A stretch of DNA of 64,000 bases from Capitulum mitella (taxonomy: Eukaryota > Arthropoda > Thecostraca > Pollicipedomorpha > Pollicipedidae), in contig CP099839.1 of assembly GCA_030062745.1 (NCBI GenBank), positions 16,047,733-16,111,732 on the forward strand, read 5' to 3'. Positions 3,791 through 64,000 of the stretch are shown here, piece by piece (the stretch's first letter is position 1; the number at the start of each line of letters is the position of its first letter). Made by a program: the position numbers and the translations under genes. Under the pieces are notes generated by a model. It did not search any database. It worked only from the letters and a program-made list of their open reading frames with translations, and was not told the origin of the DNA.

Positions 3791-3863
3791 GATAGGAGCT
3801 GAGTTTATATCCAGATGTCCAGCTTTGTCTCTCTGGTTTATCTAATAAACCAGTGGAAAATCT

Positions 3864-41326: not shown

Positions 41327-44117
41327 GATTCACACAGAGTCTAAAACACACAAGTAAAAAATATGTTGCGAGCATACTCACGAAAAATCAGACACTGTTT
41401 GTTGTGTATGAATTCCGGACAATGCATTTCGAAACATCTGGCACAAGTTAAATCTAGCAAGTGGGAACGCAGCAGTCATTCTGAATGTAACAGAAAATCA
41501 CTAAGTCATTAAGGTAGAAAATAGAAAATGACAGCCTTGTGGTACCATACATATTTCCAGCCCCCAAATCAAAATCAAAAATCAAAATAAAAGGCAAAAC
41601 AACTTCCATTCCCTGGCCTCAAAGTTATGTTCCACCTCAAATGTGTGTTTTAAAAGCCCATTTAAAAATGAAACATCATTTAATATAAATCAGATGACGC
41701 TTGATTACTACTAAATGACTCAAACTGGAATACGGGATTATACTAAACCTGAGTTATTTAAAAAATACATGAATATGAATATACCATTCTCAAACAACCA
41801 ATTGTTTGGGATTTAAAAAGCAGAACAGACATTTGGGCAGCTTGTTTACATAAAATATTAACTTTCATTTATCGTGGTATGCAAAAGGAGGTTGTCGAAA
41901 GAGAGGAAAAGCCACCAAACACCTGCACCTAGCATAGAGCACTGCAATATTTCGATTTTACTGTACTCCATAAAGTTATAATTTTAGACACAGTACATCC
42001 AAACTGCACCAACACAAAATGTCACCATATTCATCTAACTTTTTAAACTTAGCCTGAGTGTGCTCAAGTTCACAACAATGGATCAGATTCCATGCTGGGC
42101 CGGGCTCGCTGCTGCAGGATCTTAATTGTATTGTGCTCTACAATATGGCCACTCTATGACCACCTGACCCTTTCAGCCTTGCACCAAATGTAGATGCCCA
42201 TTATGGGACTCATGCTCAGTGCCTGCCATGCACCAAACTCTGTTGCCCACCTCCAGATCAAGTCTTCTAAAAGCAACAACTCAGCAGGTAGTCAATAGCA
42301 GTCACAACAGAAAGCATATGGATCAAACATAAGATGCACTCATCACCACCAATATAGCCATAGTTGCAAAGAATGCATGCATTCAAGCATGATGGCCAAC
42401 TCTACTGTGCCTAGGAAGTAGTTAGTGCTAAGAGCACAGTATATCCCATGCACAGCCCTAAATGGCCTAGGATTGAGGTATATATCTAAAGAATCAATTT
42501 ATAACATCACAAAACAAAAGTAGAGCATGCAAGCAGAGATAATGGTATGTCATACTGGCATTGTCATGCTTTCATAATGGGGTCATGGCCCATGAAATTA
42601 TCTTGAAATCCACGGATTTATCCACTTCAACTGGAGTAATGTTAAAATGCATAACAATTGCTGCTAAAGGAGCAGTGCAGTTGTTTTCTCCATGACAGCT
42701 ATGCTAATGACCAATGTCTTTGGATTGCAAAAAAAAAACATGAAGTATCTGAATGCCACACATGCAACAGTACCACCTCCCAGATTACCTAAACAAGTAC
42801 CAAGTGAGGCAACAGTCGGGCAAGCGACAACTCACCCTAATCACCCGTCACTCGTGACAATGGCGCCTCCGACGGCGACTGATGAAAACATGAGCCAGTC
42901 TGCTCGCTAGTCCACTGGACTCACCATTGGTGGATAAAAGGAGTAGGGTGACCATACGTTATCTCCAGCAACCCAGGAAGGGTAACCAGACCAAGTTTCG
43001 TGCGTCAAGGGTTCGCATGGGAAAGGTTCCAGCCAAATGTCTATAAACATAAGGCTTGTATCGGAAAGGTTTCGAATATGATAAGGTTTGGATTGGGAAA
43101 GATTGGTTCTGGGTGTGAGCCCAAGGCACAGTATAGAGTACTAGAGGCTGCAGGCTGATAAAAGGTGCGATCGGACTTGGCTCAGACTAAGAGGTTACAT
43201 TAGGTAAGGTTAGGTTAGGTTATGCTAAGTTATGATTTTAGGGCCATTTTTTTTCAGATACCAACTATTTCTGATACGAAGCTTAAGTTTAGGAGCCTTT
43301 GATTAGGAGCCCTTTTCCTTACCAATTTTCTCTCTTAGAAATCATTTCCCTACAAACCATTTGCAGTATGAACCCAGCCCAGCACACAGTCACCATTGAG
43401 ATATAACCTAATACCGCATGACCTAAGCTCTTCATTGGACGGAACCAAGCGCGATCACACCCTTCTATCGGCCTGCGGCCTCTAGCATCCTTTACCCTGT
43501 GGTCAATGAAAGATGGCAAATTAGTTAACTACCTGTTAAGTTAGTGTGAAAAATGGGGTTACAACTCCTCTAGTTTCATGGCCACCCACTGTGGCATCAC
43601 TGTCACAGGCGACGAACCATCGGCTTGAGAAGACGCCTGCCCAACTGTTACTGAAAGAGACAGCCCACCCAAACACTTGCAGATTTCAGAGATGAGATAG
43701 CTTGAGGTTGTTTAACCCTATGCAATAAAATTTAACTCATATACTTTCTCAAAACTAAGGGAGGAAACTGTACCCATAGCTCTCACTTCTGCCAGCCCTG
43801 TTCCAGTACCAGTGCATGCCTGCCTACCTTACCTTACCTTACCTTAACCTGCCCCCAAATGGGGTGGGGGCAGTTGACCCCTCCGAGGTTTTTCCAAGAT
43901 TGCAAGAGAATGAACAAATGTGGCACCACAACACTTTGTGTATCTTTTGCTTGATCATTTTTGCACCTCATACCAAATTTCTGACCTCAGGCCGAGTAAG
44001 GTGTCTGATCTAAGTCAGGTCAAGTGGACCTATGTACAAAAAGTTTAGCACCCTGCAACTTTTTCACAAAACATGATATCACAATAAAACTTCCAAGAAT
44101 TACAGATTATGGTAAAT
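41327..44117. other. Intergenic, AT-rich, with short telomere-like tracts
   Basis: This is the region upstream of PRPF4. No TATA box is evident and no gene is supported. A CpG-poor stretch runs from about 41,480 to 42,810. Short (TTAGG)-like tracts occur at 43,201-43,222 (GGTTAGGTTAGG) and at 43,825-43,848 as a CCTTA variant. Confidence 0.5.
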
Positions 44118-45045
44118 GCAAGAAATCTGCCATCTTAGATTTTTTGGAAATGTCTGGGTCATTGACCTAAGGTCATGCCCATTTTCAACACATATCATCA
44201 TTTGTCCAAAAACTGATCAAAATTCTTCTAAGAATTTCAGTGTGGTGAGATCCAGATTCATCCCATTTATCATCAATGGCCAAAGTTTCAATGACCTCCA
44301 ACCACTGACCTGAGGTAAGGACATGAATAACTATTATGAGTCAAAATGCAGTGCCATCAAAATCTGCACTGAATGACCCAGATCAGGTAGAAAATGGCAG
44401 AACTGGCTCACATGATTGCAAATAATACCAAGCAGTTCAAAAAGTTCCAAAAATTGCAAATGCTGGGAATAACAGGCTCTCACAAATAAGGCTCCACCAA
44501 CTGTGTAGATTGATAACTACTATTTTTTTTAACATTTAAGCACAAACAGCCATCAAAGAACCAGTGTGATCAGGAAACAACACTTGGAAAGGCATATTTC
44601 ATGAAAATAGATGAGCACTAAAATTAGTTCCTGTTAATTTCATACCATGCGTGCATACGGCGCCAGCCCAGCAGCGGTGCAAAAAGTGCTGTGTCTTTAA
44701 CTCAAAGTTTCTGCATACATATGAAACACGTCACAGAAATTACATGTGTATCAGCATCTTCAGACCTAAATCTGTCAGCTGGTGCCTTGACCCAGACTCT
44801 TAGTCACAGCCCTTGAGATCTAAGCCATTTCCTGGTCTCATGCCAGCTATCAGGCTATCAGAAAACACATATATGATGCAAAAGGCTTACATATTATCCG
44901 CAGCAAATAATGAAGTCCATTCCAAACTGTACTTGCCACAAGCTTTCCAACAGTGTGCCTGTCTTTACCATATGACCAACTGTTCATGAGTTAGAGGAAG
45001 GGCATATGACCACCCCCAGTTGGAGGCAGTGCATGGCCAGAAACA
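44118..45045 (+). repeat. Dispersed repeat D, copy 1 (about 0.93 kb, CpG-depleted)
   Basis: This aligns by eye with 59,696-60,605 in the same orientation. Shared blocks are AGAAAATGGCAGAACTGGCT, GCTCCACCAACTGTGTAGAT, ACTAAAATTAGTTCC, GTGTCTTTAACT and TTAGTCACAGCCCTTGAGAT. Most differences that remove a CpG from this copy are CG to TG or CA, for example CATGAGTTAGAG here against CGTGAGTTAGAG there. No open frame or terminal repeat was identified. Confidence 0.85.
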
Positions 45046-45338
45046 ACAACATTAGCACTGGAGCTCCAGGTCGTGGATCACCTGCTATCGCAACCTAACC
45101 TAACCTAACCTAACCTTACCTACCCCCCCCCCCCTACCCCAACCTACAAAAAAAAAAAAAATAAGGTTTTTGTTATCTAATATTTATTTTTTTTTTTTTT
45201 TTTTTTTTTTTTCTAACTTTTTCCTTTCTTCCTTTCCCCCCCCGCTTTTTTTTTTTATTTTTTTTTTTGTTTTTTGCGTGCGCTTCTAAAGGATTGCCGG
45301 GCATATGACCACCCCCCAGTTGGGAGTGCATGGCCACG
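45001..45338. repeat. Duplicated 36-38-bp segment flanking a telomeric and homopolymer insertion
   Basis: GGCATATGACCACCCCCAGT and the following TTGG-AG-GTGCATGGCC occur at 45,001-45,038 and again at 45,300-45,335. Between them lie about five CCTAA units (45,092-45,115), C runs, an A run and a long T-rich tract (45,186-45,270). This resembles an insertion flanked by a target-site duplication. The homopolymers make a local assembly artefact equally possible. Confidence 0.6.
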
Positions 45339-48243
45339 ACCCACAGTCAAGCGCAGGTTAATTGCCTATGGTTGTGGGGACTTTTACAGGCTACTAGGTC
45401 ACAAATCCCAAACCAGCCTAGCCATGACTACATGCAATACACTCTGCCCTAGCATGAGTGCCGTGTACTGTTCAATGGTTAAAAACATATTGAACTCCTA
45501 ATATCTTGCAAGTTCATTTATAAGACAACACAGAAACGTGACAACCCACAGCCCTCCAATGACTCTAATCCCACAATTCTAAGAATTATTAGATGCAATT
45601 ATATCCCTGGCACTGGCTTCTGCCGGCCCTGTGCCAGTGCATGCCGCCCGGCCTAAACAGCATTACATGTGGTCCACTACCGTGCATTGTCCGCCAGGTA
45701 GTTTTAATTAGTTGCAAACGTACCGATCTCCTAATCTCTTAGGAGTTCCTTTATGAAATAACAAAAACGTGGCACCATGTAGAACAACACGGGCGTGACA
45801 TTCACAACGCCTCCACGGGCAAAAAAGTTCAAAGGTGGAAGAACGACACGCACACCAAACGAAAAATTACGAAGCTAATGTCTTTGTTGCGTCATTTTTG
45901 CAACGAATAAATTTAGGTAAGGGATCGTGCATAATGACATTATTATTACTAGTTACCAAAAATAGAGTCAAATATCTAAGATTTTATGACGCCACTAATA
46001 TTGAAATATTGACGAAAATGATAGCACTGTCTTTATTCGGTTCTTGAAGTATGTCGTGCATTTCCCAGCGCACGACGACGAATCACAAAATTTTGTTGCA
46101 TGGTGTGAGCACGTGTATGTGTTGGCACATCTTGCGCACGTTTATTGACTAATTAGGCCGTTGATGTCGGATTACTAAAGTAGCTTCCAGAATTTAAGTT
46201 CTGTTGTCATAGATTGGTGAGGTAGGTGTTCTGTTTTGTTCTTGATTGGTAATTTGAAAACAGCTGTCAGTTTGGTCTGTGCCAGTGTTGTTTCATATAT
46301 AAGAGGGTCTCTGTACCTCGCATGACACTTCCCTGGAGTGTATACCTCATTCGCTGTAACTTTTATTGGTTAGACATTGCATGTCTGATAGGCAAACCTT
46401 GCTTTATCTCACCCATGCTTAGGTGCAGAAGTCATGGGGTCAGGGGGGCTTTGACCCCCAACTTTTTTAAATTTAACTTTGACCGTATTGGCAAAGACTG
46501 GAAAGGATTGACCCAAAATGCTACTTCCCCCACACTGAAAAGGAGTTCCTGTGCCCCTGTATCTATGGGTGTCAGAAATCTCAGAGGTCACAAGGCCTGT
46601 CGATTCCGGTCACGTCAAGCTCGTTACATGGCACTGGAATCTGTAATGTGTGGTTTCTTGCATGTGTTTTGCCCAGTGCCTGTTGAGTCTTGATATGAAT
46701 TTTGTGACCATGTCATCTGTCACTACATTGGATGACTGGGAATTCCAGTCATTGACAACATTAAGACTAAAAGTCCTTGGACCAGTGAGGGCTTTTGCCT
46801 GTGGCTTATGTATCTTTCACTGGTGACCTCTGGTGATATCAGAAATGTCAGGAGAAAAGTAACTTCCCATGCTTAGCAACATAACACCATGGAGGACCTG
46901 GAAAACAGCCACCATGCTACCCCTGTGACATTTATAGTAGAGGGAGGACAGCTTAAATGCCAGGAGCCTCTCCAGAGATGGCATATGCCTCAATTCCTCT
47001 GCCATCTGTGGAGCCTGACTCTGCACTGTCTTCAGATGCTTCCAGTCTGTCTTGCCAAATGGGCCTTAGATCAGGTTCCCTTATTCCAAAAATGCCCTAA
47101 CCAAGGACGTGTGCAGAAATGGGAGAGTAGAGATTGATATCTGTGAATAATTGGCAGAATACCACCAGCACCTGGGATGATAGCCACTGCTGCTGCCATT
47201 TGTTTGTGGAATCTGAGCATATACTGAACAACAAAAATCACACTTCCAGTATGCTAAAGTAGTAATGCTAGAGATAATAACTGAACAATTTTATAACATT
47301 TAAATACACTTTTTCAATGATCCTGCATTACTTCATTAAAATGACTTAAGAAATACATGATGTAAGCAACATCAGTTTTGCTGTTGGTGTTTGGAAATGT
47401 CCCATTCAATAAAACATGTAGGTGATTAAATATGGTATTGGGGAGAGTGAAGGGGGTTTTATTGCTAGGATTAAAATCCAGTTAAAAAATATGAATCAGT
47501 TGCACTTCACAGACAATGTGACCAGGCCTAGCCCAAAGTCATTGGTGGTTCCAGTGTTGGCTATGACCCAAATGACTAATTCATTGCAGCACCTCACATG
47601 GCTCAGCTAGCTGGGTAGCTGCACGAAATATTCCTGCATGTAGGTAATGTACTTCAAGGTAATGTACTTCAGCTTTATGTGATAACCTTGGCTAACCTAG
47701 CCCTACCTAGCTTAATGTACCTCACCAACTTAAGATGGGTCCTGCAACTTAAGTTTCTATCCAAGGGTAGGAGTTGGGAAGCAGAATTTGCTGATTTTGC
47801 TTGAACAAAAATGGCTAATTTGCAGAGCTGCCATAACCGAGCATTTTTAAATTTTCCGTTTACTGTCCTCCTAGGAAAAGCTACTTTATCGTCATATAAC
47901 TGCCACATGTAATTTCTTTGCATCAAAATGGAACTCCTGTTTTTTTTCTACTGAAAACTTACCCATATCAAATGAGCACAGCTGCTGGCCAAAATATATC
48001 CACCACAAAACCTTAGGTGTAATTTTGGATAGTTAAGCCAAATTGTACAAATCACATGCTCCTAGCTACCACATTGCACCTTGCCAGGCACATTAAGATT
48101 GACAACATCTCAGAGCATGCTTGCAAGAGTGAGGCTTGGGGTGACATTAGCTGGCACAACAGAAGGGTGCCATGGTACTGCAGGTGCAGCACACAGAGCT
48201 GAAGCTGCCAGTGGCAGTGGTGGTCCTGGCAGGAGTAGGCACT
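45339..48243. other. Intergenic, mostly CpG-poor
   Basis: No gene is supported. A TATATAAG box occurs near 46,297, but no coding region follows it. From about 46,640 the sequence is CpG-poor up to the GC-rich island. The remaining open frames are short. Confidence 0.5.
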
Positions 48244-48830
48244 AGCCATCCAGAGGCACGTGCATGTCCGTCGATGGCGCAGAGGACGCAGAGTCTGAAC
48301 GGTTGGGAGCGGCGGCACAGGGATCCAGGGCGGCCAGCTTCTCCCTGGCGACGGAGACGGAGACGTCTGGGCCGTCTCAGCGCACGGTGACGGTCGCACT
48401 GGCCCGCTGGACCACCGGCTACGGTCCGTCGTATGGACAAGCGAGTGGGCTGCGTGTGGCGTCGCGGCGTACACACAGGTGCGAGACGTGGGCCTCCGTT
48501 TGCGGCACAAGGCTGGGGCCTCGTGCGGCGCGCTGTGGCACTGGGCGGAGACGCCACGTGATCTGACGACGTTCGTCCGCGTACGGGACGGCGCCAGCAG
48601 CCGGCCGGCGACGGAGACCTCGACCAAGTCTCTGGGGAGACGAGCGGCGGAGCGCAGCGCGAGCTGGGCCGCGGCGCCGCTCAGGTCACGGTTCGCTGTC
48701 GTGGGTACGCTGAGCAGCGACAGAGGGACGGAGTCCGTCCGGCGCGTGGCGTCTGAAGCCTGCCGGACGGCATTGTGCCGCCAGTGGATTTTCCACGGAG
48801 CCATTGCCCTGCGAATGTTAGCTGGTTTAT
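48244..48830. other. Isolated GC/CpG-rich island with open frames on both strands
   Basis: This sharply bounded GC-rich block sits inside AT-rich, CpG-poor DNA. On the minus strand a frame stays open from 48,846 to 48,052 (264 codons). On the plus strand a frame ending at 48,832 is open for about 180 codons without an early ATG. Both have GC-rich third positions and neither contains a domain I recognise. A possible acceptor (AACATTCGCAG) precedes the minus-strand frame near 48,813. It may be a CpG island, an exon of an unrecognised gene, or an inserted fragment. Confidence 0.35.
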
Positions 48831-49954
48831 AGATGTAAGCTGGCATTAGACTAAGTCCATTGTTTGTAGGTTGTTAACAGACAAGAACTGGGGCCCGGGC
48901 GTAAAGCAAGAAAATGACAGCTGCAAGCTATGTTGAGCAGTCTCACCTAACCTTTGATGACCTTTATGGCCTCAGATCTTCTCTTTATTGTTTGCCATGT
49001 TAATAAGCACTAATACTTTCCTTCTCCCAATAGTTAGGTTAGCTCTGGGAATTCTTGGGTCTTTCATATTCACCAGTTTTTTTCATATGACGTTATTTGG
49101 CTAAGAAAAAATTGGCTTTGACTCACCTGACCTTAACATGGCCCTGAACCTCAAACTTTGCACACCATGTTTTAACCATATCCTCCACCTATCTCACAGG
49201 TGCCCTTTAGCTGTTGCATTGTTCCAAATCATTAGGTGATGAATTTTTCTTCCTCCCCATTCACTGTTGGCCGCAAAATGACCTCAGTAGCCGGCGCGCC
49301 CGAAAACACCAATAAACAACAATAATAAAACAAACCCCATTCAATATGTGGGATTCTAAGAGAGCCTCATGTGCACCCATGTTCAGCAGTATAGCAGCCA
49401 AACATTCATGAAAACCAGCTGCTACCCTAGGCGACAGTTGGGTTATTGTAAGAATGAACAGGTAATCCAGTTCAGACTTCGACGGACTGTCTGCATGTTC
49501 AGTACTTTGCCAGTTGGATGTGACATAGTTGCAATATTAATCACAAATACCGAAATTTGGTTCAGATAATTTCTTGGGGATATCTGGATCAAAGCCATTC
49601 AAAGCAGTTTGTGGCAGAAACTTTGAAGCCAACGTTAGATGCGTTTTCAGGAAATGGCTGTTTTTGAGGCAAAAATCCCTCTGATGTCAAAAGTGCAACA
49701 CAGCTTTGTGGTGTTCAGCATGATCCTCTATTGGCCAGACACCAGTTGTCCTAGGTCCAAATGATGAGTGCTGAAATGGCTCAGACCTTATTTGGATGGG
49801 AAGTGCTCTCCCATCAGAGGTACAGACCACGATCTCGTGTTTATTATGATGTATGTTACAGTTGCCTGTGGAAGTATGCTGTGTCATCATTGTTATAAAC
49901 TTCATGTTCATTTACAGCGTGAAGTCTTCTCAACGGACGAGGCAGGGCTAAATC

Positions 49955-52900
49955 ATGTCGATCCTTGAAAAAATAGCAGACATTGAAAATGAGGTATGTA
50001 CCAATTGCCATTTTCCCGAAAATGTTTGTGATATATTCACACCTGAGTAGCTCGTGTTACATCGCAAACAGTACGTTATGTTCTCCATTATTTTCATTTT
50101 ATGGAGTACATCTTTGGCGTGTGTCATCATGGAGCATGTCGTAGCCTCTTTTGAGTTTCCAGTTGTGTGTCTGTCTCAGCTAATGGTTGTGACATACATT
50201 TTTATTTTGGCCAGCATGGCACATCTGATTATGCACAACAGTTGTCCCAACAGAGAAACGTATTGACATTCCCTCATGTGTGCAGATGGCTAGGACCCAA
50301 AAGAACAAGGCCACAAGTGGTCACCTGGGTCTCCTGAAGGCCAAGTTGGCCAAACTGCGGCGGGAGCTGATCACGCCCAAATCCAGTGGCGGCGGCACTG
50401 GCGAGGGGTTCGACGTCAGCAAAACGGGAGACGCACGCGTCGGCTTTGTAGGTGAGACTTTCGCCGTTTTGTAATGCTGATCCAACAGGCAGTGTAATTC
50501 GCTGATGGTATTATTCCTGGGATGTCCATGGACTCAGTCGTCATGTGTTGGCCACCTCAGGTTTTCCCTCTGTGGGGAAGTCGACGCTGCTGAGTAATCT
50601 GGCTGGAGTGTACTCGGAGGTTGCCGCATACGAGTTCACCACGCTCACCACCGTCCCAGGCTGTATCAAGTATAAGGGGGCCAAAATCCAGGTAAAAGTG
50701 CTAGGTGCGAAAGCAGTTTTTAATGCAGATGGAACGTGGTACTGTGCTGTGTGTAGGTAGCATACGTTTACTTGGTATCGAATCGTAGTACGGCACCCAA
50801 CCGTTTTGTGCAGAATGCCCACCATCATGGAGCGTGTCGGCGGTTCGACTTTTTCGATCTTACGTTTGTTGATTTGCGACACGCGGTAACGCTTAAAAAA
50901 CCCTTGTGTGTCGATGGCCGCTGAAATATTAACTGAGACGTGTACCTTATCAGTGTGCTTTTTTCGTCACGGCTGGTCACCGTTTCAGCTGCTCGACCTG
51001 CCCGGTATCATCGAGGGAGCAAAGGACGGCAAAGGTCGCGGTCGGCAGGTGATTGCCGTCGCTCGCACCTGCTCTCTGATCTTCATTGTGCTGGACGTGC
51101 TGAAGCCGCTGCAGCATAAGAAGATGCTGGAGCACGAGCTGGAGGGCTTTGGCATCCGACTGAACAAGGAGCCGCCCAATATTGTGTTCCGGCGGAAGGA
51201 CAAAGGTGGTCTCAACTTCCAGGCTATGGTGGGTGACTCGGTGCTCGTGAATGTTGTGCAGTTGTAGGATTCAGGAGACTGTTGGGCTGGAAGCATTTCG
51301 AGGACCGCTCGTGCTTTTGCCACAGGCGTACGTGGCAAATCGTGCGCAGTCCAGCGGTTGGATGATACTTTTTGTGTTGAAAAGCGTAAAAATCGGGCAG
51401 TTGGTAGTGTATGGCAGAACTGGAAGCGAATTGCTTCGTCCTGATTCATATGGTGCAGGTCAAAGTGTGTAAAAAGCTGAGCATCCTACCTCCTGTCCCA
51501 CTGTCGTGATCCAGCGCCTGTGGTTGACGTTTTACAGAATGCCTCTGACGACGTAGGCCTCTTGGTGTTAATAATTCTCGAACTATTATCGTCGACAAGA
51601 AACACTCCTGACGAGGACAACGTTCCGAAAAAGCGGACTGCCCTGGTTACACGGGATTTACATGGGTTACGTGTATGCGTTTCATCCATGCAAAGGCTGA
51701 ATAGGACGGGGTTTAAACTGTTTCTGTATGCGGTCTGCACTGCTGAGGCGGGGACTTCGCCCGGCCTGCAGGTGCCGCAGTCCGAGCTGGACCTGGACAT
51801 GGTGAAAACCATTCTGAACGAATACAAGATCCACAACGCAGACATCACGCTGCGCTGCGACGCCACCCCGGACGACCTGATCGATGTCGTGGAGGGCAAC
51901 CGCGTCTACATCCCCTGCATCTACCTGTTGAACAAGATAGGTGCGCGGTCGGCGCCGGTGTGGCGTCCTCTGGCCGCGCTGCCTGTGGGGGTTTGTTGGT
52001 CGCTTTGTCGGGCTGGAGGACCCCCTGTGAGAGTTTGTCGGTCATTGCACAGTGCTGGAGAACCTCCTGTGAGGGTCGACCGGTCACTGTGTAGGACTAG
52101 AGGACCACCTGTTTCGGAGAGGGGGTCTGTCGGTCATTGTGCAGGGTTGTAAGACCCCCCTGCGAGGATCTGTCGGTCACGGTGCCGGACTGGAGGGCCT
52201 CCTGTGAGGGTCTGTCGGTCACTGTGGAGTGCAGGCAGACCTCCTGTGAGGGTCTGTAGGTCACTGTGCTGGGCTGCAGGACTTCCTGTGGGGTGTGTCG
52301 GTCACTGTGGAATGGAGGAAGACCTGTGGAGATTGTCGGTCATTCCTGGCTGGAGGACCTCCTGTTCGGATCTGTCGGTCACGGTGCCGGACTGGAGGAC
52401 CCCCTGTCAGGATCTGTTGGTCACTGTACAGTGCAGGAAGACGTCCTTTGGGTGTTGATTGGTCACTGTGTCGGGTTGCAGGACCTCCTGTGAGGGTCTG
52501 TTCGTCACTGTGGAGTGTAAGAAGACCTGTAGAGGTCTGTGGGTCGCTGTGCCTAGGAGGACTTAAGGATTTCCTTTGTGGGCCTGAACGTTATTGTGGC
52601 GTTGGTGTCTTCTCGCACACCCATCCTATAAGATGTGGCAAGTGAGTTATGCCATGAGTGTTGCATGAGCACTAAGGAGGATGAAATGTGTATCAGCTCT
52701 ATGTCTGATAGAAGGAGATCGGTAGTGTGTTGCTTCAGTGTAAATGAGTGTGTTGGCTCCATTTTGGCATGCGATTTATTTTGACGAACGAGAGCTTCAT
52801 TGTTCATATCCACTTTACTGACTACTGCTGAGTAGCACCTATGGTGTTGATAACTAAGGATAAAAAGGAATATTGGTGTTCCGAACCTTGAAAATCCTGA

Positions 52901-54377
52901 GATGGTTTCCCTGTCTGACAAGCTGCATGCACCTCTGCACCTAGTCATAAAAGTCATCTGTGTCATGTTCTCAGATCAGATTAGTATCGAGGAGCTGGAC
53001 ATCATCTACAAAATTCCGCACTGTGTGCCGATCTCGGCTCACCACAAGTGGAACTTTGACGACCTGCTGGAGAAAATGTGGGACTATCTGCAGCTGATTA
53101 GGATGTGAGAACTCGCGCCAGAGCGTCGGGCTTAGCGCAGGCGGCTGTCGCTCATCGTAATTGCTATAGACTTCATTTTAGGCGGAATCGAAAAGAGATA
53201 TGACCAGACTCAGCCTCTGCTGGGTATCACGAAATACGTCGGTCTTGTGGCAAGCCCCCTGTGGCAGCGCCAGTATGGAATTGATTTTTTTATGAAGTGC
53301 ATATGTTTTCTGGGTCGAGGAAGTTCAAATCCTCAGATTAAATTTGCTCGTTATGATGACAAGTAAGGTTGGAAATTTGGTTTTTGCTCTTGGTGTTGGA
53401 GTGTAATTTTTGTTTTGGAGTACAAAATTTTGTGCAGAGTAATACTGTGGTATAAGTTGGCGTTCTTGGTGGAAGTCAGTTATGATGTCATACATGTTCC
53501 TTACTGAATTGAGACAGAGTCATTAATTCCCAGAGTAAGAAGTTTCTCAGCATTGTTAAAATGTAGCTTTTTGATGGAGGCACAATAACGGACTTTTGGA
53601 GTATAAAATGTTTTTGGAGCACTTATTCTCTGGTGTTCTTCAACATAAAAGCAGCATCTTTTTCAACCTTGATCACAAGTGAATGCTGTGGCATCTGTTT
53701 CGGTGCGAGGTTTCATCCTCCTGATCAGTGCAGTTGTGTTTTCTTTCCGATTCCAGATACACAAAACCGAAAGGTCAGCTACCGGACTATGAGACGCCCG
53801 TGGTTTTGCCGTTGGCTCGGCATTCGGTTGAGGACTTTTGCAACAAGATTCATCGCAGCATCATCAGAGAGTTTAAATAGTGAGTTAGCTTTTCTGTACC
53901 ATTGAAACAACAGACATTGTTTCGTTTTATTGAACCTGTACGCATGTCATGTAGTGTCCCCAAATGTCCTCAGGTACTCTGTCTTGATTTAAATGAAGTT
54001 TTATGTTTTTTATACCTGGTGACAGTTGCCTCGTATATTTGCGGTAGATTCGCAGTGCTGTCGTATCATAAATAGTTTTCTTCCTTGTCATTTTCACTGC
54101 ACCTCGTACAAATGCGGAGCTGCAGTGAGTAGTTTTCCGTGCTAGCGGTAGCGCACTTTGTCGCCGGTCGTGTCCACCACGGACAGGAGGACGTGGCTGA
54201 ACGTCGGGCAACAAGGCGTCAGCCCGCGTTCCGCCGACTTGGCCTAGTCTCACCTGGCCTGTGGCGTGTTTCAGCGCACTGGTCTGGGGCGAGTCAGTCA
54301 AGCACCAGCCGCAGAAGGTGGGCAAGGAGCACGTGCTCTGCGACGAGGACGTGGTGCAGATCGTGAAGAAGGTCTAA
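49955..54377 (+). CDS. DRG1: Developmentally regulated GTP-binding protein 1
   Basis: Eight exons join in phase: 49955-49993, 50286-50451, 50561-50691, 50989-51228, 51772-51940, 52975-53104, 53757-53879 and 54275-54377. They give 366 residues, one fewer than human DRG1. DRG1 is a cytoplasmic Obg-like GTPase that associates with translating ribosomes and the stabilising partner DFRP1/ZC3H15. Visible elements: N-terminal [11 protein letters not shown]1 P-loop GFPSVGKST (about 69-77, split by intron 2); [10 protein letters not shown] (switch I); DLPGIIEGA (G3); NKID (G4, about 246-249, split by intron 5); PISAHH (G5); and a C-terminal TGS domain ending DVVQIVKKV. All nucleotide-binding motifs are intact. 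An AG acceptor-like TTCATTTACAG at 49,916 suggests the ATG exon may be preceded by a non-coding exon. Intron 5 carries a minisatellite and intron 6 a dispersed repeat. Confidence 0.97.
51975..52565 (+). repeat. Minisatellite in DRG1 intron 5, unit about 50-57 bp
   Basis: CCTGTGAGGGTCTGTCGGTC followed by ACTGTG(C)-GTGCTGGAGGAC recurs about eleven times with substitutions and length variation. The intron donor is at 51,941. The array starts about 35 bases after it and fills nearly 600 of the intron's 1,034 bases. Confidence 0.8.
53368..53670 (+). repeat. Dispersed repeat A, copy 2, in DRG1 intron 6
   Basis: This is the same-strand relative of 2,851-3,148 with the same block order. It keeps some CpGs that read CA in the other copy, such as TTGGCGTTCTTGG here against TTGGCATTCACTG there. 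It ends about 85 bases before the intron's acceptor. Confidence 0.8.
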
Positions 54378-57300
54378 CGCACGGCGCCGTGACCAGAGAC
54401 TGTGATAGGACCTTGCGGTCCGATCAAGGCGTCGCAGTGACCGCGGCTGCACTTCTTCCGAGCACCGGCCTGGAATAGCATTGCTGCCACACTGACCCCT
54501 CTGTTTTCTGTGAAGTTTGGAGGCGTTATGTCGCGTACGCTAAGATTGGGGCAGTGCTGCTCTGTATCAGCGGGTATTTTCGCTGATAGTAATAACAGTT
54601 TCTGCGTCTGTTGTCTTCGTCCACGCCGTTTCGCTTCCGGACACTCAATCTCAGCCTGTCCTGGACGTTTTTGAGGGTGGAACGTTGTTCAGACGTGGTG
54701 GCGTCTGTTCGCTACAGCTGGGCAAATATATTGGGCTGGTCGAATAGCGGAACAATGCCCGTCACATACCAGCGTCTGCACGCAAAGACCTTACACATTT
54801 TAGGTCCCCGCCACGTTTCTTGTATAAATTAGTCCATCGATGTTCGACTTTCCCGGCAAATGTCCTCGCTTACCTGTTTGAGAATTCAGACCTCTGGTGG
54901 CTTGCGTTTGGCGATCGTGTCCGAAATACCGCTGAGGCAGCGGAATTTGTTGCAGTGAAGGTCGATAGGACACACAGAGGTCATAAAAGATAGGTTGGTC
55001 TCATCGACTTGAGACGACGGTGAGACAAATTTCGATTCAGCTCGGACATTCGATTCGATTCAAAGACTTTCCTGATTTTTCATCATAGCAGCTTTAAGTT
55101 TTGTAGGATAGCGGTCTGAGCATCGGTGGTTTGAATCCGAGTGAATGCTTAATGGAGCCTTGCGCGTTTGTCTTCCTGTGCAAGTGCATATATATTCTGC
55201 GTTAGTTATTTTTTTGCCATATTTTACATAGAGCGCACAAGTTTTCTTGTCTTCTGAACGTTTTGGAAGAATATGAACAAAGCAAAGTGAGTACTAATAG
55301 CATGTTTCGCAGCGTGTAGCATGTTTCTAGTAGATGTTTGCCCTTTTGACGGCGCCATGCGTCATCACAGGGATGCATTTTTTATGTCACAGGGACGCCT
55401 TTTCAGCGCCAGGGCACTCATACACAATCACCAGGATGCCTCTGTGTCCTGTGTGTCCTGTATGTGTGACATAACCGTGTTAACGGCGCGGTTATTGGAC
55501 AGGCTGCACATAAGTTATTTTATGGTTGCTTGCTCGATGTTACCGGAGGTCCTTTTTAATCTAAGCGCGCCCGTGTCCTGTGACAAGGGTGTGCGATGTC
55601 CTGTGCGCCCTTCAACGATCGGGTGCCTTTGCATCCACGGACAGCATTAGTCCGTGAGTGACTTGCATGCTCTTAGCTGTTCCCAACGGCTGAGTGCCAT
55701 GCATTTGGCGGCCCTACCTGCCGAATGCGGGTGAGGGCGCCAAATTACTAGGTGGGGGCTAAGACACTTTGCCCCTCCCTAGAACCCAAGCGGGGGCGCC
55801 CCCGCCCTCCTCCCCCGGATCCGTCCCTGGTGATACGTCGCGCGCCTGGGTGCTTTTTATTGCGAAACGTCAACGGTCTTAATGCGACATTAAAACTGAA
55901 TTGATAGATTCGGGAATGAAAGCACGAACTTCTTCCAGGGGGCGTAGCGCTTAAGTCGTGGCCGGAGGAGTTTGGCTGTCTTTGCAAACGAAAGATGGTA
56001 CATGTAGCTACACCATGGCGCTGTTTTCAAGTCTCTGCAATCTCGGGATCGCCAGTTCTCCAAAAACGTTCAGAATTGGCTTTTCCGCATTCCCATCGCT
56101 TGCACGTAACGCGGGCCGCGCTCGTTCTGAGTCGACGCGTTTCAAGTCGATCTGAGCCGCGGTAGCCGAAAAAAAAACTGATCGTAACCGGGACCATGTT
56201 TGACGCTGTTTGTGATTCCCGTTGTACGTGTTATCCCTATGGGCTAAAAATCTCCTGAAGCGTTCATCGTGCGCCCATGACGGGCCGCAGCGCGACGAAA
56301 ATTAACCTTTACACTGGTAGAGCGCGAGATCTTTCGAACGGTGCATAGCTCGAGGCGATCCGTCAACACGCTTGGGTCCCGGACTGGAGCTCATATTTGT
56401 GGAGATACACTTTATACAAATAAAAGCCTAAGGCTCGCTGCTTACTTCGTTAACCCACACACTCTCGGGTCTTCGAATTGCCCTTCGCTTACCGGGGTGG
56501 GGAGGGGATCCCCGAGAATCCCACATGATGTCGAAAACTCAAGACCTACGGAAATGAGAGTAACACCAGTCGGAAGCTTGTGAAATGTTATGGAGAATGA
56601 ACGCATATTTATTGACTCCGGGTGAGTAGTCCAGTATCAAGAGATCAGAAAATGCCATGTCATGACGTCCAAAACTAATGGGGAATAAAAGCAAATATGG
56701 CGGTCTTATAAAGTGATCTTTTATACTTCGCAATCCAAAAAAGGCCAGAAACGTTTTTCATTGCCAAAAGGTAACTGGATTCTCCTCAGGTCATGTCAGG
56801 CCAGGTCTACAGTCAATTGGAATACAACACTGATTTACGTCGAAACTAACACGCAGTTGAAGTTATTTCAAGCATACGTTTTGGAGTCACCATTACGACT
56901 GTTTGGTCATACATGGCAACTTTTATCACGAAGAAAAAAATAATATAGGTGATCTAAGGCCATATCAAGTCAACCAAGCTGAGATCTTCCGGTATTCGTA
57001 TTTGGTGATTGGGTATAAGTACGAATGCCAAACAACGGCCATGCTATAATCATGCTAATGTGTTCCTGAATGGCGTGAAAGTCAGGGTCTGATCAGGTCA
57101 GGGTAAGGATGATAAAAGGTAAAATGTGTCTGTCTCATTCGAAAAATCACGGTGCCAGAGGACAAAACGAATCATTTCAACACATCTGAAGTCACAAAAA
57201 TCGCTTGAAGTCACTAAAACAAGAGTTCTTACGGTCAATGTAGTCATGCAAGGTCAACATACGCCAAATGAGTATTCGTAAGCATCTCAGAAACAATAAT

Positions 57301-57981
57301 AAAATAATAATAGTAATAAGTACGTCCTGAATGTGTCGAAATGGCTTGCGCTGGGATCAGAGTCCTTACTAAACCAAGTTTGTTGTTGGACCCTGACTCC
57401 GGCACCCAGGTGTTCCCAAATATGGAGTAATTTTGCCCTAGGCGCCGAGTCAGACGGCGCTGGAAGATCTTTATCGTGCCGCACATTTCCACGACACGAC
57501 AGCCCTGTGCTTGGTTGACCCTTTCGGTCCCGGTGCCCGTTCTGGGACTGGGACCCATTACGTGCCACGTACCGGATCTGTTGTCCAGCTCCTTTTCCTT
57601 CAGACCACGGCAACGGCAAATAAAAGTAAACTTGTGAAAGCAACTTTATGCGTTGTCTGAAAACATTTCATGGAATTCCATGGCGTCCCAAGTGAAAGCA
57701 ACCTTTGAAGTAATATCAGGTCGTGTCAGGTCACATAAGGTGATGCCATTTAAAATCCTTTACTAGTGAAAGTGGAATTTACATTTATCATGCCTCACCA
57801 GAAGTGAATGAAAGACGCATTTTGTATCCATTTTGTTGTACTGCATCTCAGGACGGTTGACCTGAGTTCAAGTCACACAATTTCCCAAACAACTGAGAAT
57901 TTTCATTGTGTAGAGAACGAGTTGGAGATTAAAACAGCGTTTTCCGTTTGTCAGTATCTTTTTTGACAGTCACTAGCACAC
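54378..57981. other. Intergenic, no gene recognised
   Basis: This presumably starts with the DRG1 3' untranslated region. A GC-rich patch with C/G runs at about 55,720-55,830 ends in CCCCCGGATCCGTCCCTGG, which resembles the GGATCC-containing motif near 20.3-20.6 kb. The 109-codon frame at 55,321-55,650 has no domain. Several AGGTCA-type hexamers lie in 56,950-57,250. Confidence 0.5.
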
Positions 57982-59195
57982 GCTTAACCCTATTCCCGGC
58001 AGGGGGCTGAATCCGCCCCCCTCGGGTTTTTTTCTTGCCAATTCCAGGCTTTTTCACGCAGCTTCACGAACCGTGGTCACTTCTCTAAGCTATTTTTTCT
58101 ACGTGCTGTGACAAAATTTCGAAGTTTTAATTTGATCAAGGGCGGAGCCAGGCAACGTTTTTGGGAGACACCTCAGACCTTTTTGGCCCTGTTGAGGGTA
58201 AAAGGAAAATAACTGCCAAAAATAGCGTTTTTAAGATAGAACTTCAGATTTAATATTGATGCATAGCTAAATAGTTGGGCAATGTGCAAATGCAGTTTTG
58301 TTCGTCTGAGGCCACTTTACAAGGTGAGGTCAAGGTCAAGTTAAAATTTGCTTTTAAAGTGATAATTCCGGCGCTATTTTTTCAAATGCCAAACGCAGAA
58401 TATATATGACATAGGAACGGTGCCCCCTAATCGTGTATCACGTTTCAGCTTGATATCAGGTCTGTTCACGGAGCTATGACCTAAAATATCAATGCGTGTA
58501 CCCCATATCACAATAGCCGTGAAATGGAATTTCTGAAATAGAGTGAATTCAAATGATTGAGAACGTTTACAAGCAATATAAAATGCACACGAGACCATTC
58601 TAAGTGACTCCAAGGTCACTAGAGGTCGTTTAAGGTCAAAGGTCGTAAGTTGATCTGAAGAACATGTGACCATGACCTGTTCCCCCTTTGTCATGTCCCT
58701 AGCACTGATTACGTTAACAGCATACAAACATTGTAATACGATTTGTACTTCCTTAGCATAACATGACTAGCGGAAGCCAAAAAAGTGCTTCTACCTTTTT
58801 TGTTCATTGAGCTGTTGAACTAATCCTCCTATTTTTGAAACGCTGTGAACGCCTACGAGTTTTCTCAAAATTTCAAACGTGTGCACCTATGGTAAATTAA
58901 GTCCCATCCATAATCTTTCGATTCATGCCGATTTCATCGAAATCGCTCCATAAACAACGGAGTTATAAGAAGCCCAAAAACACCCCATTTTGGTATTTTG
59001 CCCCCTGTATCCGCCCTTTCCAAAATTTGGAGAACATCTTTCTCTAAGTGTAGTTTACGTCATGGCAAATCCATTGCCGTTTGTTGCGATGAAATTGGAT
59101 GTGTAGTTGTTGAGATTTCGGGGAGGGGCCGAAACCCCCCCCCGTGCCGGGAATCGGCCATGCCATCGAGCCCTCCGGGAACAGGGTCAAACTTT
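57982..59195 (+). mobile_element. Non-autonomous DNA-transposon-like element, copy 2 (family C)
   Basis: This is the better preserved relative of 16,690-17,920. The left end TTAACCCTATTCCCGGCAGG and the right end CCCTCCGGGAACAGGGTCAA form imperfect terminal inverted repeats of about 20 bp. Internal G/C-rich sub-terminal arms (GGGGGCTGAATCC against GGCCGAAACCCCC) are also inverted. The element has no open frame for a transposase, so it would rely on another element. It contains AGGTCAAAGGTCG near 58,635, a direct repeat of a nuclear-receptor half site with one-base spacing, which the other copy also has. Confidence 0.75.
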
Positions 59196-59695
59196 TTGGC
59201 ATGTCTTGCCAAATAGGCCAGTGACCATGCATGACCTTATTTCGAATATTTTCACGTTGTGAAAGTGATGCACTAACAGCTATTGAAAACTTTACGTTTC
59301 CATCTCTCTTCGTTTTTGCGCTGTATTTAGAAAACCTGAGAGGGACTCCTCGGGACCCCCTCCGCCCCCCAGCAAGCGAAGGTTAAACAAGGCTTCTGCG
59401 CACTCTGTAGCATACAACCATACTAATTCCGTGTCACTCCAATTTCTTGATCTAATCGTAAGTTCTGGGAAAAAAACAACACAGGACGGGCGGGAGCCAC
59501 TAGGGTACTGGTTTACACTGCAAAACCCCAGCCGGAGGGCTTGAGCCATGGAGTCACAGGGATGGAACACGTGAAGCGGTGCCACACCTGCCACAGAACG
59601 TCAGTTTCTCACAAGCTGATTGTTCCGGAAAAAGGAAAGTTAATCTATTTCTAGGTTTCTGCTGTCGTTACCTTTTTAGGTCTGTCCTTGATAGC
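59196..59695. other. Spacer between two repeat elements
   Basis: A 500-base stretch between the family C and family D copies. It has C-rich runs near 59,350-59,375 and no gene. Both neighbours are repeats, so this may itself be repeat-derived. Confidence 0.45.
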
Positions 59696-60605
59696 TGCAA
59701 CAAATCTGTTGTCTCATATTTTTCGGGATTTTCTGGGCCACTGACCTTAGGTCAAGCCCATTTCTAAGACATGTCCTTTTTTCGGAAATTGGAGGAATTT
59801 TTCATAACATTTGTAGTGTGGGGTGAAGCAGACATCTATTTACCGTCAATGGGCAAAGTATCAATGACTTCCAGCCATTGACCTGAGGTCAGGCCACGAA
59901 TAATTGTTGTGAGCCAAAATGTACCACCGTCAAAATCAGCGACGAATTACTCAGAATGGGTAGAAAATGGCAGAACTGGCTTGCACAGACGTAAGTAATG
60001 CCAAGGACCTCAAAAAGTTAAAAATTGCTTGTTTTGGAAATAAATAAGCTCTCGCGAATAAAGCTCCACCAACTGTGTAGATTGGTAACTAAAAATTTTC
60101 CAAAATTTAAGCATGAGAAACCATCACAAGAACCACTAAGACCAATAAAATTTAGATTAAAAGGCTTATGTCGCGAAAATAAAAGAACACTAAAATTAGT
60201 TCCCGTCAAATTCTTTTTGCGTGCGGCTGCGACGCCCGCCGACAGCCGGCGAGAAAATTGCCGTGTCTTTAACTGAAAGTTTTAACAGAAAGTATCTATT
60301 GAATAAATCAGAGAAATTTTACCTGTATCGGCATCTGCGGGCCTTTACTTCTGCCTTGGTGCCGTTACCTATGCGTTATTAGTCACAGCCCTTGAGATTC
60401 AGGCCGTTTCTCGGTCTCATACGGTCGGCTATGAGAGAACATATATAGGACGTAAATTGCTTACATATTATCTAAAACTAAAAAAATTAGGCCAGTTGCG
60501 AGCTCTAATCGTCACAAGCTTTCCAACGGTGTGCTTATTTTTATCTTGGGACCAACCGTTCGTGAGTTAGAGGGGGGCGGTCAACCCCCCAGTCGGGCGA
60601 GATCG
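59696..60605 (+). repeat. Dispersed repeat D, copy 2 (CpG-containing)
   Basis: This is the same-orientation relative of 44,118-45,045. It keeps CpG at sites changed in the other copy, including CTCTCGCGAATAA (other copy CTCTCACAAATAA), TATGTCGCGAAAATA (TATTTCATGAAAATA) and TTTCCAACGGTGTGC (TTTCCAACAGTGTGC). The element boundaries are approximate. Confidence 0.85.
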
Positions 60606-62040: not shown

Positions 62041-62737
62041 TTACACATGAGGATAAGTGCAATTTTTATTTGACGAATAACAACGAAAAAAATTATAAAT
62101 TTCCACTGGTCAAAATAAAGTGGGCTAAATCCATTGATAAATCCACATTTGGAGGGAGGTTAGTATGTTGGGCCCTCGGTTCGGCCCCCAATCATTCACA
62201 GAAATCGGCGCCCCTGGAATAGGGAATACAAGAATCATGAAGACGACTGTGTTTCAATATTGAAGCTACATTAGGAACAGCTGTTTGTTGCGCATGCGCA
62301 TTACCCTGAAAGCACCATCGTCTTCCGCCGCAGCTGACGTACGGTGTCTCCTCACAGGGTCCCGTGCTCTTCATTACTTAGCTTTCATAAATGTCAGAAT
62401 CACAATCATCTCTGCTTCTACGTAAACAGTTGGCCGGTGAGTTACGTTCGTAAAGCTGCGTTATGGGCATTTCTTAGAGGCAAAAGGGATATGCTCGTTA
62501 TGCTTGATGGTGCGTGACTTGTAACTCGGCCCAGCCTTTGTTTCGTGTCCACGAGATTAAACACTGGCATCTCCACGATCCGTGGTCGTTGCGTTGCTAT
62601 CCCTCACATCATTTGGAATGACTGCAGTAAGGAAGGCTCAATAAAATAGTTCCAGGATGAGTCATTGGGTCTGGTGCACCTCACGCATTACCATGGGCTG
62701 AGGCAGGCCTATGCTTCCAGTGTACCTGAACAGGACA

Positions 62738-62739
<2 letters not shown>

Positions 62740-62804
<65 letters not shown>

Positions 62805-62823
62805 GAGAGGGAGAGAGAGAGAG
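62740..62823. repeat. (TA)n then (GA)n compound microsatellite
   Basis: About 30 TA dinucleotides from 62,740 to 62,800 are followed by a GAGAGAGGGAGAGAGAGAGA tract. Confidence 0.95.
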
Positions 62824-63331
62824 TGTGTATAGGAAAGAGGACTTAGTCCTTTAAGTTACCATTCTAGCCATTTTTGAGTTTTGCTTCCTTGTAAATTGGA
62901 CCCATTTCTTCAGTTCAGATTGTTTCTTCTTATTTCCTGAATTTATAGGTAGCATCTGTAATATGCTGAGTAAGGAAGCTCCAATATACAAAGAAATCTG
63001 CAATGTCAATGTCAGAAACTATAAAATAGCAGTTTTATAACATAGTGATTGGTTTGCCATGATCAAACATTATTGGTAGAAGATTCTCAAGAACAAGTAG
63101 AATTGAATTGGGCTGAAACATATTTTTAATACCAACATATTTTTTCACACCTGTCAATGGGAAATCCAGGAGCCATGAAATGAAAACAATGTACCATGTT
63201 CTCTTTTTCTTCTTTCATTAATTGTTGCTGCCTGAAAGGACCTGAAAGGAATCATTGTACACCTTCATACATTTTTGAATGCACAAAGTATAAATAAGCT
63301 TACATTAGCAATGTTAGGAGTTCAGAATAGA
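62824..63331. other. AT-rich sequence with no CpG
   Basis: No gene is supported. The whole interval from about 62,690 to 63,975 contains no CpG dinucleotide by direct reading, even though it is almost 1.3 kb long. Confidence 0.6.
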
Positions 63332-63522
63332 GGCTTGCATCTTAATGATTTGTACTGCAGGCAGAAGTGTCTATACCACTATAAATATTGTGGTTGTGCA
63401 TAAATATTATGCACAACCACTATAAATATTAACCACTATACCACTATAAATATTATGCAACCACAATATTTATAGTGGTATAGACACTTCTGCCTGCAGT
63501 ACAAATCATTAAGATGCAAGCC
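63332..63522. repeat. Perfect 65-bp inverted repeat with nested hairpin in the spacer
   Basis: Arms 63,332-63,396 and 63,458-63,522 are exact reverse complements over 65 bases, with a 61-base spacer. Inside, TGGTTGTGCATAA and TTATGCACAACCA (63,391-63,419) form a second perfect hairpin with a three-base loop. The spacer also repeats pieces of the arm (CCACTATAAATATT). Confidence 0.93.
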
Positions 63523-63904
63523 ATGCTTCAGATGTGAGAGCCTGATGTTTTGTTGACATGGTGGGCATTACAGCACACATCATTGGTCTAACCAGAAAGA
63601 CTACATGAGATTGGAGGATTTTTTGTTATCTTCCTGCATGGATGCCATAGCATATTCATAGGACTAAACATTACCTCAAAACAGATTGTGATCCAGTGTA
63701 CAGTTTCATAAGAATAGCAAGCACCAGTTGCAGTGCCAGAGGTGTGAAGTGGTAGGATTAAATGATCTTTTTCATATACCTTTACTGCTAATACTACTGT
63801 GCTTTGAATGTTGCCTTGGTGTCTGACATGATACATGGATAGGAAGTGTGGTTCCCTTTGTTCTGTCTCTGGTAATATGTACTGTATTTTATATTGTTTG
63901 TTTG

Positions 63905-64000
63905 TTTGTTTGTGAGTTAGGACACACAGCCTCTTGGGCTCAGGTGTCCAAAGTCTTGGGTCAAGTCCTGTGTTTCGTCAGGTGTCAGTCAGTCATCTGG
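63905..64000 (+). repeat. Dispersed repeat E, copy 2, preceded by (TTTG)n
   Basis: After four TTTG units (from 63,897), GTGAGTTAGGACACACAGCC onward is the reverse complement of the copy at 1,105-1,232. It continues to the window edge and is therefore truncated by the window, not necessarily in the genome. Confidence 0.8.

What the first reader, a model, noticed from the sequence alone, without database searches (positions are those of the whole stretch)
44118..60605. Two copies of repeat D differ mainly by CpG to TpG/CpA, implying compartmentalised germline methylation
Aligning 44,118-45,045 with 59,696-60,605, CpGs in the distal copy become CA or TG in the proximal copy at many sites (CTCTCGCGAA/CTCTCACAAA, GTCGCGAAAA/TTCATGAAAA, CCACGAAT/ACATGAAT, TCTCGGTCTC/TCCTGGTCTC, CAACGGTG/CAACAGTG). 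Repeats A and E show the same direction between copies in CpG-poor and CpG-rich domains. This is the signature of methylated-cytosine deamination confined to certain domains. In many arthropods methylation is reported mainly in gene bodies, so CpG loss in intergenic repeat domains is of interest.
Basis: partly seen in the sequence, partly recalled or inferred. Interest (0 to 1): 0.75.

Follow-up and report, generated by a model that had tools for sequence, protein, structure and literature searches.

The report
CpG-eroded transposon in methylation-like domain
A mobile-element copy that landed in one CpG-starved patch of an arthropod chromosome (probably a barnacle) has lost nearly all its CpG sites while its relatives elsewhere kept most of theirs, which is what long-lasting DNA methylation confined to some stretches would leave behind; this is known in other animals and is modestly new here.

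Summary
The core observation is real. Scored against 20 other genomic copies of repeat D (a 1.2-kb, TTAA-ended, piggyBac-like non-autonomous element), the 44-kb copy keeps 5 of 64 ancestral CpGs; 54 became TG/CA/TA. The 20 others keep 939 of 1229. Its non-CpG divergence (0.110) is within the others' range (0.072-0.112), so age does not explain it. All 20 fetched copies have CpG-normal flanks. The window has sharp CpG-starved blocks in otherwise CpG-normal DNA; DNMT1, SRA-domain and DNMT3-type ADD matches are present. Best reading: mosaic germline CpG methylation, with this D copy passively caught in a methylated domain.
Two parts of the finding fail. The other repeat pairs I could identify do not show the same direction. 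And "intergenic" is not supported: one block is intron 1 of UBE2G1; the block holding D lies between PRP4 and a DRG1 start exon preceded by a splice acceptor, so may be a 5' intron. A wider gene test was weak: 3 of 13 E2 stretches against 0 of 20 background loci, p = 0.05. No methylation data were available. Precedent: Ciona.

The parts
43844..45045 (+).
   Evidence: Aligns to 20 other genomic copies at 74-78%; 5 of 64 ancestral CpG kept over the whole element
45046..45309 (.). Insertion inside the D copy with an (AACCT)6 stretch and poly-T
   Evidence: Gap in the D alignments between about 45,040 and 45,310; tandem repeats at 45,092-45,122 and 45,183-45,212
45310..45362 (+). 3' end of the CpG-eroded D copy, ending in GGTTAA
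59696..60605 (+). Repeat D, CpG-retaining copy (another subfamily; listed relatives 84-87%)
   Evidence: 33 of 56 scored ancestral CpG kept; CpG o/e 0.99; relatives
41451..49850 (.). CpG-poor domain 2, with less depleted or CpG-normal islands near 42.9-43.4, 45.3-46.1 and 48.3-48.9 kb; between PRP4 (-) and DRG1 (+)
   Evidence: 500-bp windows below 0.35; gene ends
1..5350 (.). CpG-poor domain 1 (continues to -3,049 left of the window), with an island at 551-1,400; between the Rheb start exon (-) and the SLC35A-like gene (+)
   Evidence: in 1,401-5,350 14 CpG seen and 152 expected, TpG+CpA 702 seen and 473 expected
62601..64000 (.). CpG-poor domain 3 (continues to about +69.1 kb): intron 1 of UBE2G1
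   Evidence: exon 1 and exon 2 with matching splice sites and phase
62391..62436 (+). UBE2G1 exon 1 (MSESQSSLLLRKQLA; likeness recalled), followed by a GTGAGT donor
   Evidence: exon 3 best solved relative is UBE2 G1
49918..53877 (+). DRG1 gene: start-codon exon 49,918-49,993 behind a TTCATTTACAG acceptor, later exons to at least 53,877; 500-bp CpG o/e 0.45-1.08 from 50.0 to 54.0 kb
37726..41318 (-). PRP4 (U4/U6 snRNP WD40) gene, CpG-normal
5320..8600 (+). SLC35A-like nucleotide-sugar transporter gene; extent by eye
   Evidence: Pfam Nuc_sug_transp in 1 of 89 ORFs of 1-5.5 and 62-64 kb; ORFs
2847..3151 (+). Copy of a ~300-bp repeat family that was CpG-poor wherever fetched
53364..53669 (+). 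Second window copy of the same ~300-bp family, in a DRG1 intron

Best explanation
The genome carries mosaic CpG methylation in its germline: much of it is unmethylated, and some stretches of several kilobases have been methylated for a long time. In those stretches methylated cytosines deaminate to thymine, so CpG decays to TpG or CpA. A non-autonomous DNA transposon (repeat D) happened to insert into one of them at 43.8-45.4 kb and was methylated passively as part of it, losing about nine tenths of its CpGs, while copies in unmethylated DNA kept most of theirs. The most likely identity of the stretches is the 5' part, often the first intron, of a minority of widely expressed genes. Shown: CpG-specific loss in both the TG and the CA form; ordinary age of the copy; dependence on place rather than on repeat family (one eroded copy against 20). 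Inferred: that the agent is methylation, that it acts in the germline, and that the D domain is a 5' intron.
For: The 44-kb copy keeps 5 of 64 ancestral CpG (33 CA, 20 TG, 1 TA, 5 other); the 20 other copies keep 939 of 1229, the lowest single copies 42 of 63. Per-position CpG transition rate is 1.23 against 0.063 at other C/G sites of the same copy, about 19-fold; in the other copies 0.096. C/G sites outside CpG are not elevated: 23 of 367 by transition, A/T sites 42 of 625, so there is no general GC-to-AT drift. Non-CpG divergence is 0.110; range of the others 0.072-0.112; the CpG-keeping 59.7-kb copy is more diverged, 0.163. All 20 fetched copies have flanks with CpG o/e 0.85-1.13 and 0 of 240 flank windows below 0.35. 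In the CpG-poor blocks TpG+CpA are in excess (e.g. 702 against 473 expected). DNMT1, SRA domains at two places and one ADD_DNMT3 match over cut-off are present. Gene association: UBE2G1 intron 1; an N-terminal coding exon and the adjacent intron in two CDC34-like paralogues (L050, L051; named by eye); a 500-bp block at o/e 0.11 beside the first found exon of a DNMT2-like gene. The Ciona paper PMC3827831 (passages read) states that repeat copies in introns of methylated genes are passively methylated while copies elsewhere are methylation-free.
Against: No methylation data and no transcripts. Only one D copy in a CpG-poor domain was examined. The gene link is weak as a general rule: 3 of 13 E2 stretches had a 500-bp window below 0.2 against 0 of 20 D-flank loci (p = 0.05); at 0.35 it is 3 of 13 against 1 of 20 (p = 0.28), and two of the three are paralogues. 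None of the seven further E2 stretches near N-terminal exons was CpG-poor. Rheb's intron between -8.8 and -3.05 kb, the PRP4 body, the 50-52 kb part of DRG1, the later UBE2G1 body, the far 4 kb of the L051 intron and the DNMT1 and SRA loci are CpG-normal, unlike whole-gene-body methylation. CpG-poor windows of unknown gene context also occur beside the other repeat family (4 of 66). Domains 1 and 2 could be intergenic.
Confidence: 0.72

Rival explanations
1. The methylated domains are intergenic: divergent upstream regions shared by head-to-head gene pairs (Rheb/SLC35A-like, PRP4/DRG1) are methylated as such.
For: Domain 1 lies between the start exon of Rheb (-) and the first recognised SLC35A-like exon (+); domain 2 between the start exons of PRP4 (-) and DRG1 (+). 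No Pfam domain at E 0.01 was found in 106 ORFs of domain 2, and only the transporter in 89 ORFs of 1-5.5 and 62-64 kb.
Against: Domain 3 is inside UBE2G1. The start exons of DRG1 and Rheb are preceded by splice acceptors, so upstream 5' exons are expected. CDC34-like exons and introns are CpG-poor. 0 of 240 windows in flanks of 20 dispersed D copies are CpG-poor.
Confidence: 0.25
2. The element itself is the target: repeats are methylated as genome defence and lose CpG for that reason.
For: TE methylation is reported in the amphipod Parhyale and other arthropods (PMC5111886, PMC7343188; passages read). The ~300-bp family is CpG-poor in all 10 fetched copies, mostly in CpG-normal flanks.
Against: 20 of 20 other fetched D copies are CpG-rich (o/e 0.95-1.32). 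The CpG-poor state reaches kilobases beyond D on both sides. The ~300-bp family shows only four alignment columns with CpG in two or more of 14 copies, so it looks CpG-poor by origin rather than by recent decay.
Confidence: 0.07
3. The CpG-poor copy is simply much older, or the region has a general GC-to-AT mutation bias.
For: The block is AT-rich (G+C about 0.40).
Against: Non-CpG divergence of the copy is 0.110 (others 0.072-0.112); GC-to-AT transitions outside CpG are 23 of 367, A/T transitions 42 of 625; GpC is kept at 43 of 58.
Confidence: 0.03
4. The CpG-poor blocks are large segments of foreign or older sequence with an intrinsically CpG-free composition.
For: Three blocks of about 6-8 kb with abrupt edges.
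Against: They share only short repeats with each other, and a D copy whose relatives are CpG-rich decayed inside one of them, so the cause acted in place after insertion.
Confidence: 0.03

Closest known systems
Mosaic gene-body methylation of Ciona intestinalis with passively methylated repeats (PMC3827831, passages read; Simmen et al. 1999, seen only as its reference)
   Same: Methylated and unmethylated domains; repeat copies in methylated introns methylated by position, copies elsewhere free of methylation
   Different: Ciona has bisulfite data and methylation over whole transcription units; here only the mutational scar is seen, in an arthropod, and mostly in 5' or first-intron stretches
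Gene methylation across arthropods (Lewis et al. 2020, PMC7343188, passages read)
   Same: A subset of genes carries methylation; its two crustaceans showed little exon-intron difference
   Different: Most arthropods there are exon-enriched; here some introns are depleted to o/e near 0 while many exons stay CpG-normal; the word barnacle does not occur in its main text
Parhyale hawaiensis methylome (PMC5111886, passages read)
   Same: A crustacean with methylated CpG and DNMT1/2/3
   Different: Vertebrate-like there, with repeats highly methylated; here 20 of 20 fetched D copies outside the domain show no strong CpG erosion
CpG-depleted gene bodies of the copepod Eurytemora carolleeae (PMC11706791, passages read)
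   Same: CpG o/e read as historic methylation in a crustacean
   Different: Unimodal depletion over genes there (mean 0.5); a sharp mosaic here
piggyBac-like non-autonomous DNA transposons (TTAA target; recalled)
   Same: D ends in TTAACCC...GGGTTAA
   Different: No transposase or autonomous partner was looked for

Membership tests
Mosaic intragenic CpG methylation of invertebrates | Sharp alternation of CpG-depleted and CpG-normal domains | tested here: met
   20,850 of 84,000 bp in merged 500-bp windows below 0.35, much of the rest near 1
Mosaic intragenic CpG methylation of invertebrates | Loss specific to CpG and on both strands (TG and CA) | tested here: met
   20 TG, 33 CA, 1 TA of 64; about 19-fold over other C/G sites
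Mosaic intragenic CpG methylation of invertebrates | Repeats affected by place, not by family | tested here: met
   One eroded D copy in a CpG-poor domain, 20 of 20 fetched others CpG-rich in CpG-normal flanks; the number of eroded copies seen is one
Mosaic intragenic CpG methylation of invertebrates | Domains coincide with transcription units | tested here: inconclusive
   Well supported for UBE2G1 intron 1 and two CDC34-like genes; 3 of 13 E2 stretches against 0 of 20 loci (p = 0.05), 3 of 13 against 1 of 20 at the looser cut (p = 0.28); domains 1 and 2 unresolved
Mosaic intragenic CpG methylation of invertebrates | Depletion runs along most of the gene body | tested here: not met
   Later UBE2G1 body, the 50-52 kb part of DRG1 and the far part of the L051 intron are CpG-normal
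Mosaic intragenic CpG methylation of invertebrates | Maintenance methylation machinery in the genome | tested here: met
   DNMT1 exons, SRA at two places (not shown to be UHRF1), one ADD_DNMT3 match
Mosaic intragenic CpG methylation of invertebrates | 5-methylcytosine present in germline DNA | not testable with these tools
   No methylation reads available
Methylation of transposable elements as such | Most copies of the family depleted of CpG | tested here: not met
   20 of 20 other fetched D copies have CpG o/e 0.95-1.32; they are the 20 best of 39 listed places
piggyBac-like non-autonomous element (repeat D) | TTAA at both ends, CCC/GGG termini | tested here: met
   TTAA seen by eye at the 5' end in 12 of 20 and at the 3' end in 11 of 20 copies; several copies are cut short by the alignment; the 44-kb copy has both
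piggyBac-like non-autonomous element (repeat D) | Mobilised by a piggyBac-type transposase | not tested
   No transposase search was made

The most novel reading that the evidence does not exclude
In this crustacean, germline methylation is focused on the 5' part or first intron of a set of genes and leaves most exons and later gene body untouched, the reverse of the exon-centred insect pattern, and it is strong or old enough to erase nearly every CpG (o/e 0-0.05 over two to three kilobases).
Probability: 0.3. Interest if true: 0.5.

Novelty: new member of a known kind. Interest (0 to 1): 0.36.

Why it matters
Dispersed copies of one transposon act as calibrated probes: each copy arrived CpG-rich, so its CpG loss relative to its non-CpG divergence reads out how long its site has been methylated in the germline, without any methylation assay. 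Applied genome-wide, this would map long-term germline methylation in a lineage for which the paper searches made here showed no methylome, and would test whether crustaceans methylate introns rather than exons.

Tried and rejected
Age or general AT bias as the cause: rejected by non-CpG and GpC controls. Targeting of D as a family: rejected by 20 of 20 CpG-rich fetched copies. Domains as copies of one large element: rejected, they share only short repeats. Coding genes inside the CpG-poor blocks: Pfam at E 0.01 on 106 ORFs of 42 aa or more (41.4-49.95 kb) and 89 ORFs of 40 aa or more (1-5.5 and 62-64 kb; three ORFs over an AT repeat at 62.7 kb left out) gave only the nucleotide-sugar transporter; shorter ORFs were not scanned. 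In the neighbours, 90 ORFs of L033 gave Ras, Roc, GTP_EFTU and a weak EGF match, and 104 ORFs of L034 gave UQ_con. E2 genes as a general test: 3 of 13 only. Not done because the search machine did not answer: Ras and cuticle-protein families (PF00071, PF00379), TET (PF12851), a repeat search with 41,400-44,100, and the repeat content of the CpG-normal islands inside the blocks. Not done for lack of letters: 19 of the 39 other D places listed. Rfam and tRNA scans of the window gave nothing.

Full report
What was checked. The finding says that two copies of repeat D differ mainly by CpG to TpG/CpA, that repeats A and E agree, and that this means germline methylation confined to intergenic domains. 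I checked the pair, polarised it with other copies from the window's own assembly (477,042,490 bases, 16 contigs), and looked at what the CpG-poor domains are.

The pair. The copies at 44,117-44,997 and 59,696-60,573 align at 72.6%, and the quoted examples are there. Comparing the two directly, 27 CpGs are TG/CA in the 44-kb copy and 1 in the other; GpC losses by transition are equal, 13 and 13.

Polarisation. A search with the 44-kb copy listed 39 other places plus two fragments (the tool scored only 40 of 5724 first-look candidates). The 20 copies have CpG o/e 0.95-1.32, in flanks of 0.85-1.13. With the majority state of these copies as ancestor, leaving out the copy being scored, the 44-kb copy keeps 3 of 42 CpGs (15 TG, 20 CA, 4 other) and 33 of 42 GpC; the 20 others keep 591 of 767 CpGs. 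Over the whole element it keeps 5 of 64 CpGs (33 CA, 20 TG, 1 TA, 5 other) against 939 of 1229 in the others, Fisher p about 1e-29; copies share ancestry, so this p is only a guide. Its non-CpG divergence is 0.110, with 0.072-0.112 in the others, so it is near the old end of an ordinary range; the CpG-keeping 59.7-kb copy is more diverged (0.163). The CpG transition rate in the eroded copy is about 19 times that of its other C/G sites.

The other repeats. A and E were named without coordinates. Of the other window pairs, 16,715-17,919 / 58,002-59,190 is symmetric (13 and 12 losses) and CpG-normal in both copies. The ~300-bp family at 2,847 and 53,364 is CpG-poor in all 10 fetched copies (0-0.49), although most of their flanks are CpG-normal, and has only four columns with CpG in two or more of 14 copies, so it carries little information. 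The claim that other repeats agree is therefore not supported.

The domains. With 10 kb added on each side, the main CpG-poor blocks are -3.05 to 5.35 kb, 41.45 to 49.85 kb and 62.6 to 69.1 kb, with islands of normal or less depleted CpG inside. In 1,401-5,350 there are 14 CpGs where 152 are expected, and 702 TpG+CpA where 473 are expected; GpC is 152.

Genes around them. Rheb (-) has its start exon at -2.94 kb and its next exon at -8.9 kb. The first recognised exon of an SLC35A-like gene (+) is near 5.33 kb. PRP4 (-) begins near 41.32 kb. DRG1 (+) has its start codon at 49,955. UBE2G1 (+) has exon 1 at 62,391 and exon 2 at 73.2 kb, with a GTGAGT donor, an acceptor and a matching phase. Block 3 is therefore intron 1 of UBE2G1. 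Blocks 1 and 2 lie between head-to-head genes; the start exons of DRG1 and Rheb are each preceded by a plausible splice acceptor, so upstream non-coding exons are likely and the blocks may be 5' introns. PRP4 and the SLC35A-like gene also have acceptor-like stretches before their first coding letters, so which gene would own a block is open. Pfam found no domain in 106 ORFs of block 2.

Wider test. Two CDC34-like paralogues (named by eye) have a CpG-poor N-terminal coding exon and adjacent intron: L050 is CpG-poor at both ends with a normal stretch between, L051 is CpG-poor for about 3 kb and normal for the next 4 kb, and the 2 kb upstream of L051 are mostly normal. One more E2 stretch has a short CpG-poor window; three of the first six have none. 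These six were chosen for visible introns over about 1 kb. Seven further E2 stretches near N-terminal exons were all normal. In all, 3 of 13 E2 stretches against 0 of 20 D-flank loci have a 500-bp window below 0.2 (p = 0.05); at 0.35 it is 3 of 13 against 1 of 20 (p = 0.28). In the non-overlapping count 0 of 240 D-flank windows and 4 of 66 flank windows of loci L039-L049 are below 0.35. The later UBE2G1 body is normal, as are the DNMT1 and SRA stretches and most of the DNMT2-like ones, with one block at 0.11 beside a DNMT2-like exon. DRG1 varies from 0.45 to 1.08 between 50 and 54 kb. So the gene link is good in single cases and unproven as a rule.

Machinery. DNMT1 exons, DNMT2-like exons (named by eye), SRA domains at two places (not shown to be UHRF1) and one ADD_DNMT3 match over the cut-off (an ATRX-type ADD domain is not excluded) are present.

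Literature. Listings and abstract beginnings from seven searches and passages of six papers (abstract and outline of one) were seen. Searches pairing barnacle or Amphibalanus with DNA methylation showed no barnacle methylome among the 7 papers or the 12 listed of 26. The closest precedent is Ciona: copies of repeats in introns of methylated genes are passively methylated and copies elsewhere are not (PMC3827831). Lewis et al. describe two crustaceans as having little exon-intron difference (PMC7343188). Engelhardt et al. did not find DNMT3 in the copepod orders they studied (PMC8821070).

Verdict. A true and cleanly measurable methylation-type scar, ordinary in kind, with an unusually strong local effect.

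Noticed in passing
window 45,046-45,309: An insertion inside the D copy holds about six AACCT units, the complement of the arthropod telomere motif TTAGG (motif recalled), next to poly-T.
   Followed up: no
window 43,819-43,848: The D copy sits directly behind a short run of CCTTA units ending at its TTAA target.
   Followed up: no
window 2,847-3,151; 53,364-53,669; -1,272 to -976; 70,708-71,026: A ~300-bp repeat family, CpG-poor in every fetched copy, has four copies in this 84-kb stretch, in or near CpG-poor blocks or a gene intron; possible insertion preference or origin from a methylated source.
   Followed up: partly
window 551-1,400; 45.3-46.1 kb; 48.3-48.9 kb; 66.5-67.1 kb: Islands of near-normal CpG inside the CpG-poor blocks; two are G+C-rich (0.6-0.69). 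Young insertions or unmethylated promoters.
   Followed up: no
window 12,984-13,820: A 42-bp tandem array (with 210-bp higher-order period) lies in a long open frame.
   Followed up: no
window 34,503-36,643: A 90-bp tandem array and a 54-bp array lie in or beside a long open frame that begins like a sperm Sp17/RIIa-type protein (by eye).
   Followed up: no
G000 C4:30.07 Mb and C6:30.84 Mb; C2:26.32 Mb and C3:29.37 Mb: Two SRA-domain loci and two CDC34-like genes on different chromosomes; both CDC34-like genes are CpG-poor at an N-terminal exon. Compatible with the reported barnacle genome duplication (PMC11331182, passages seen).
   Followed up: partly
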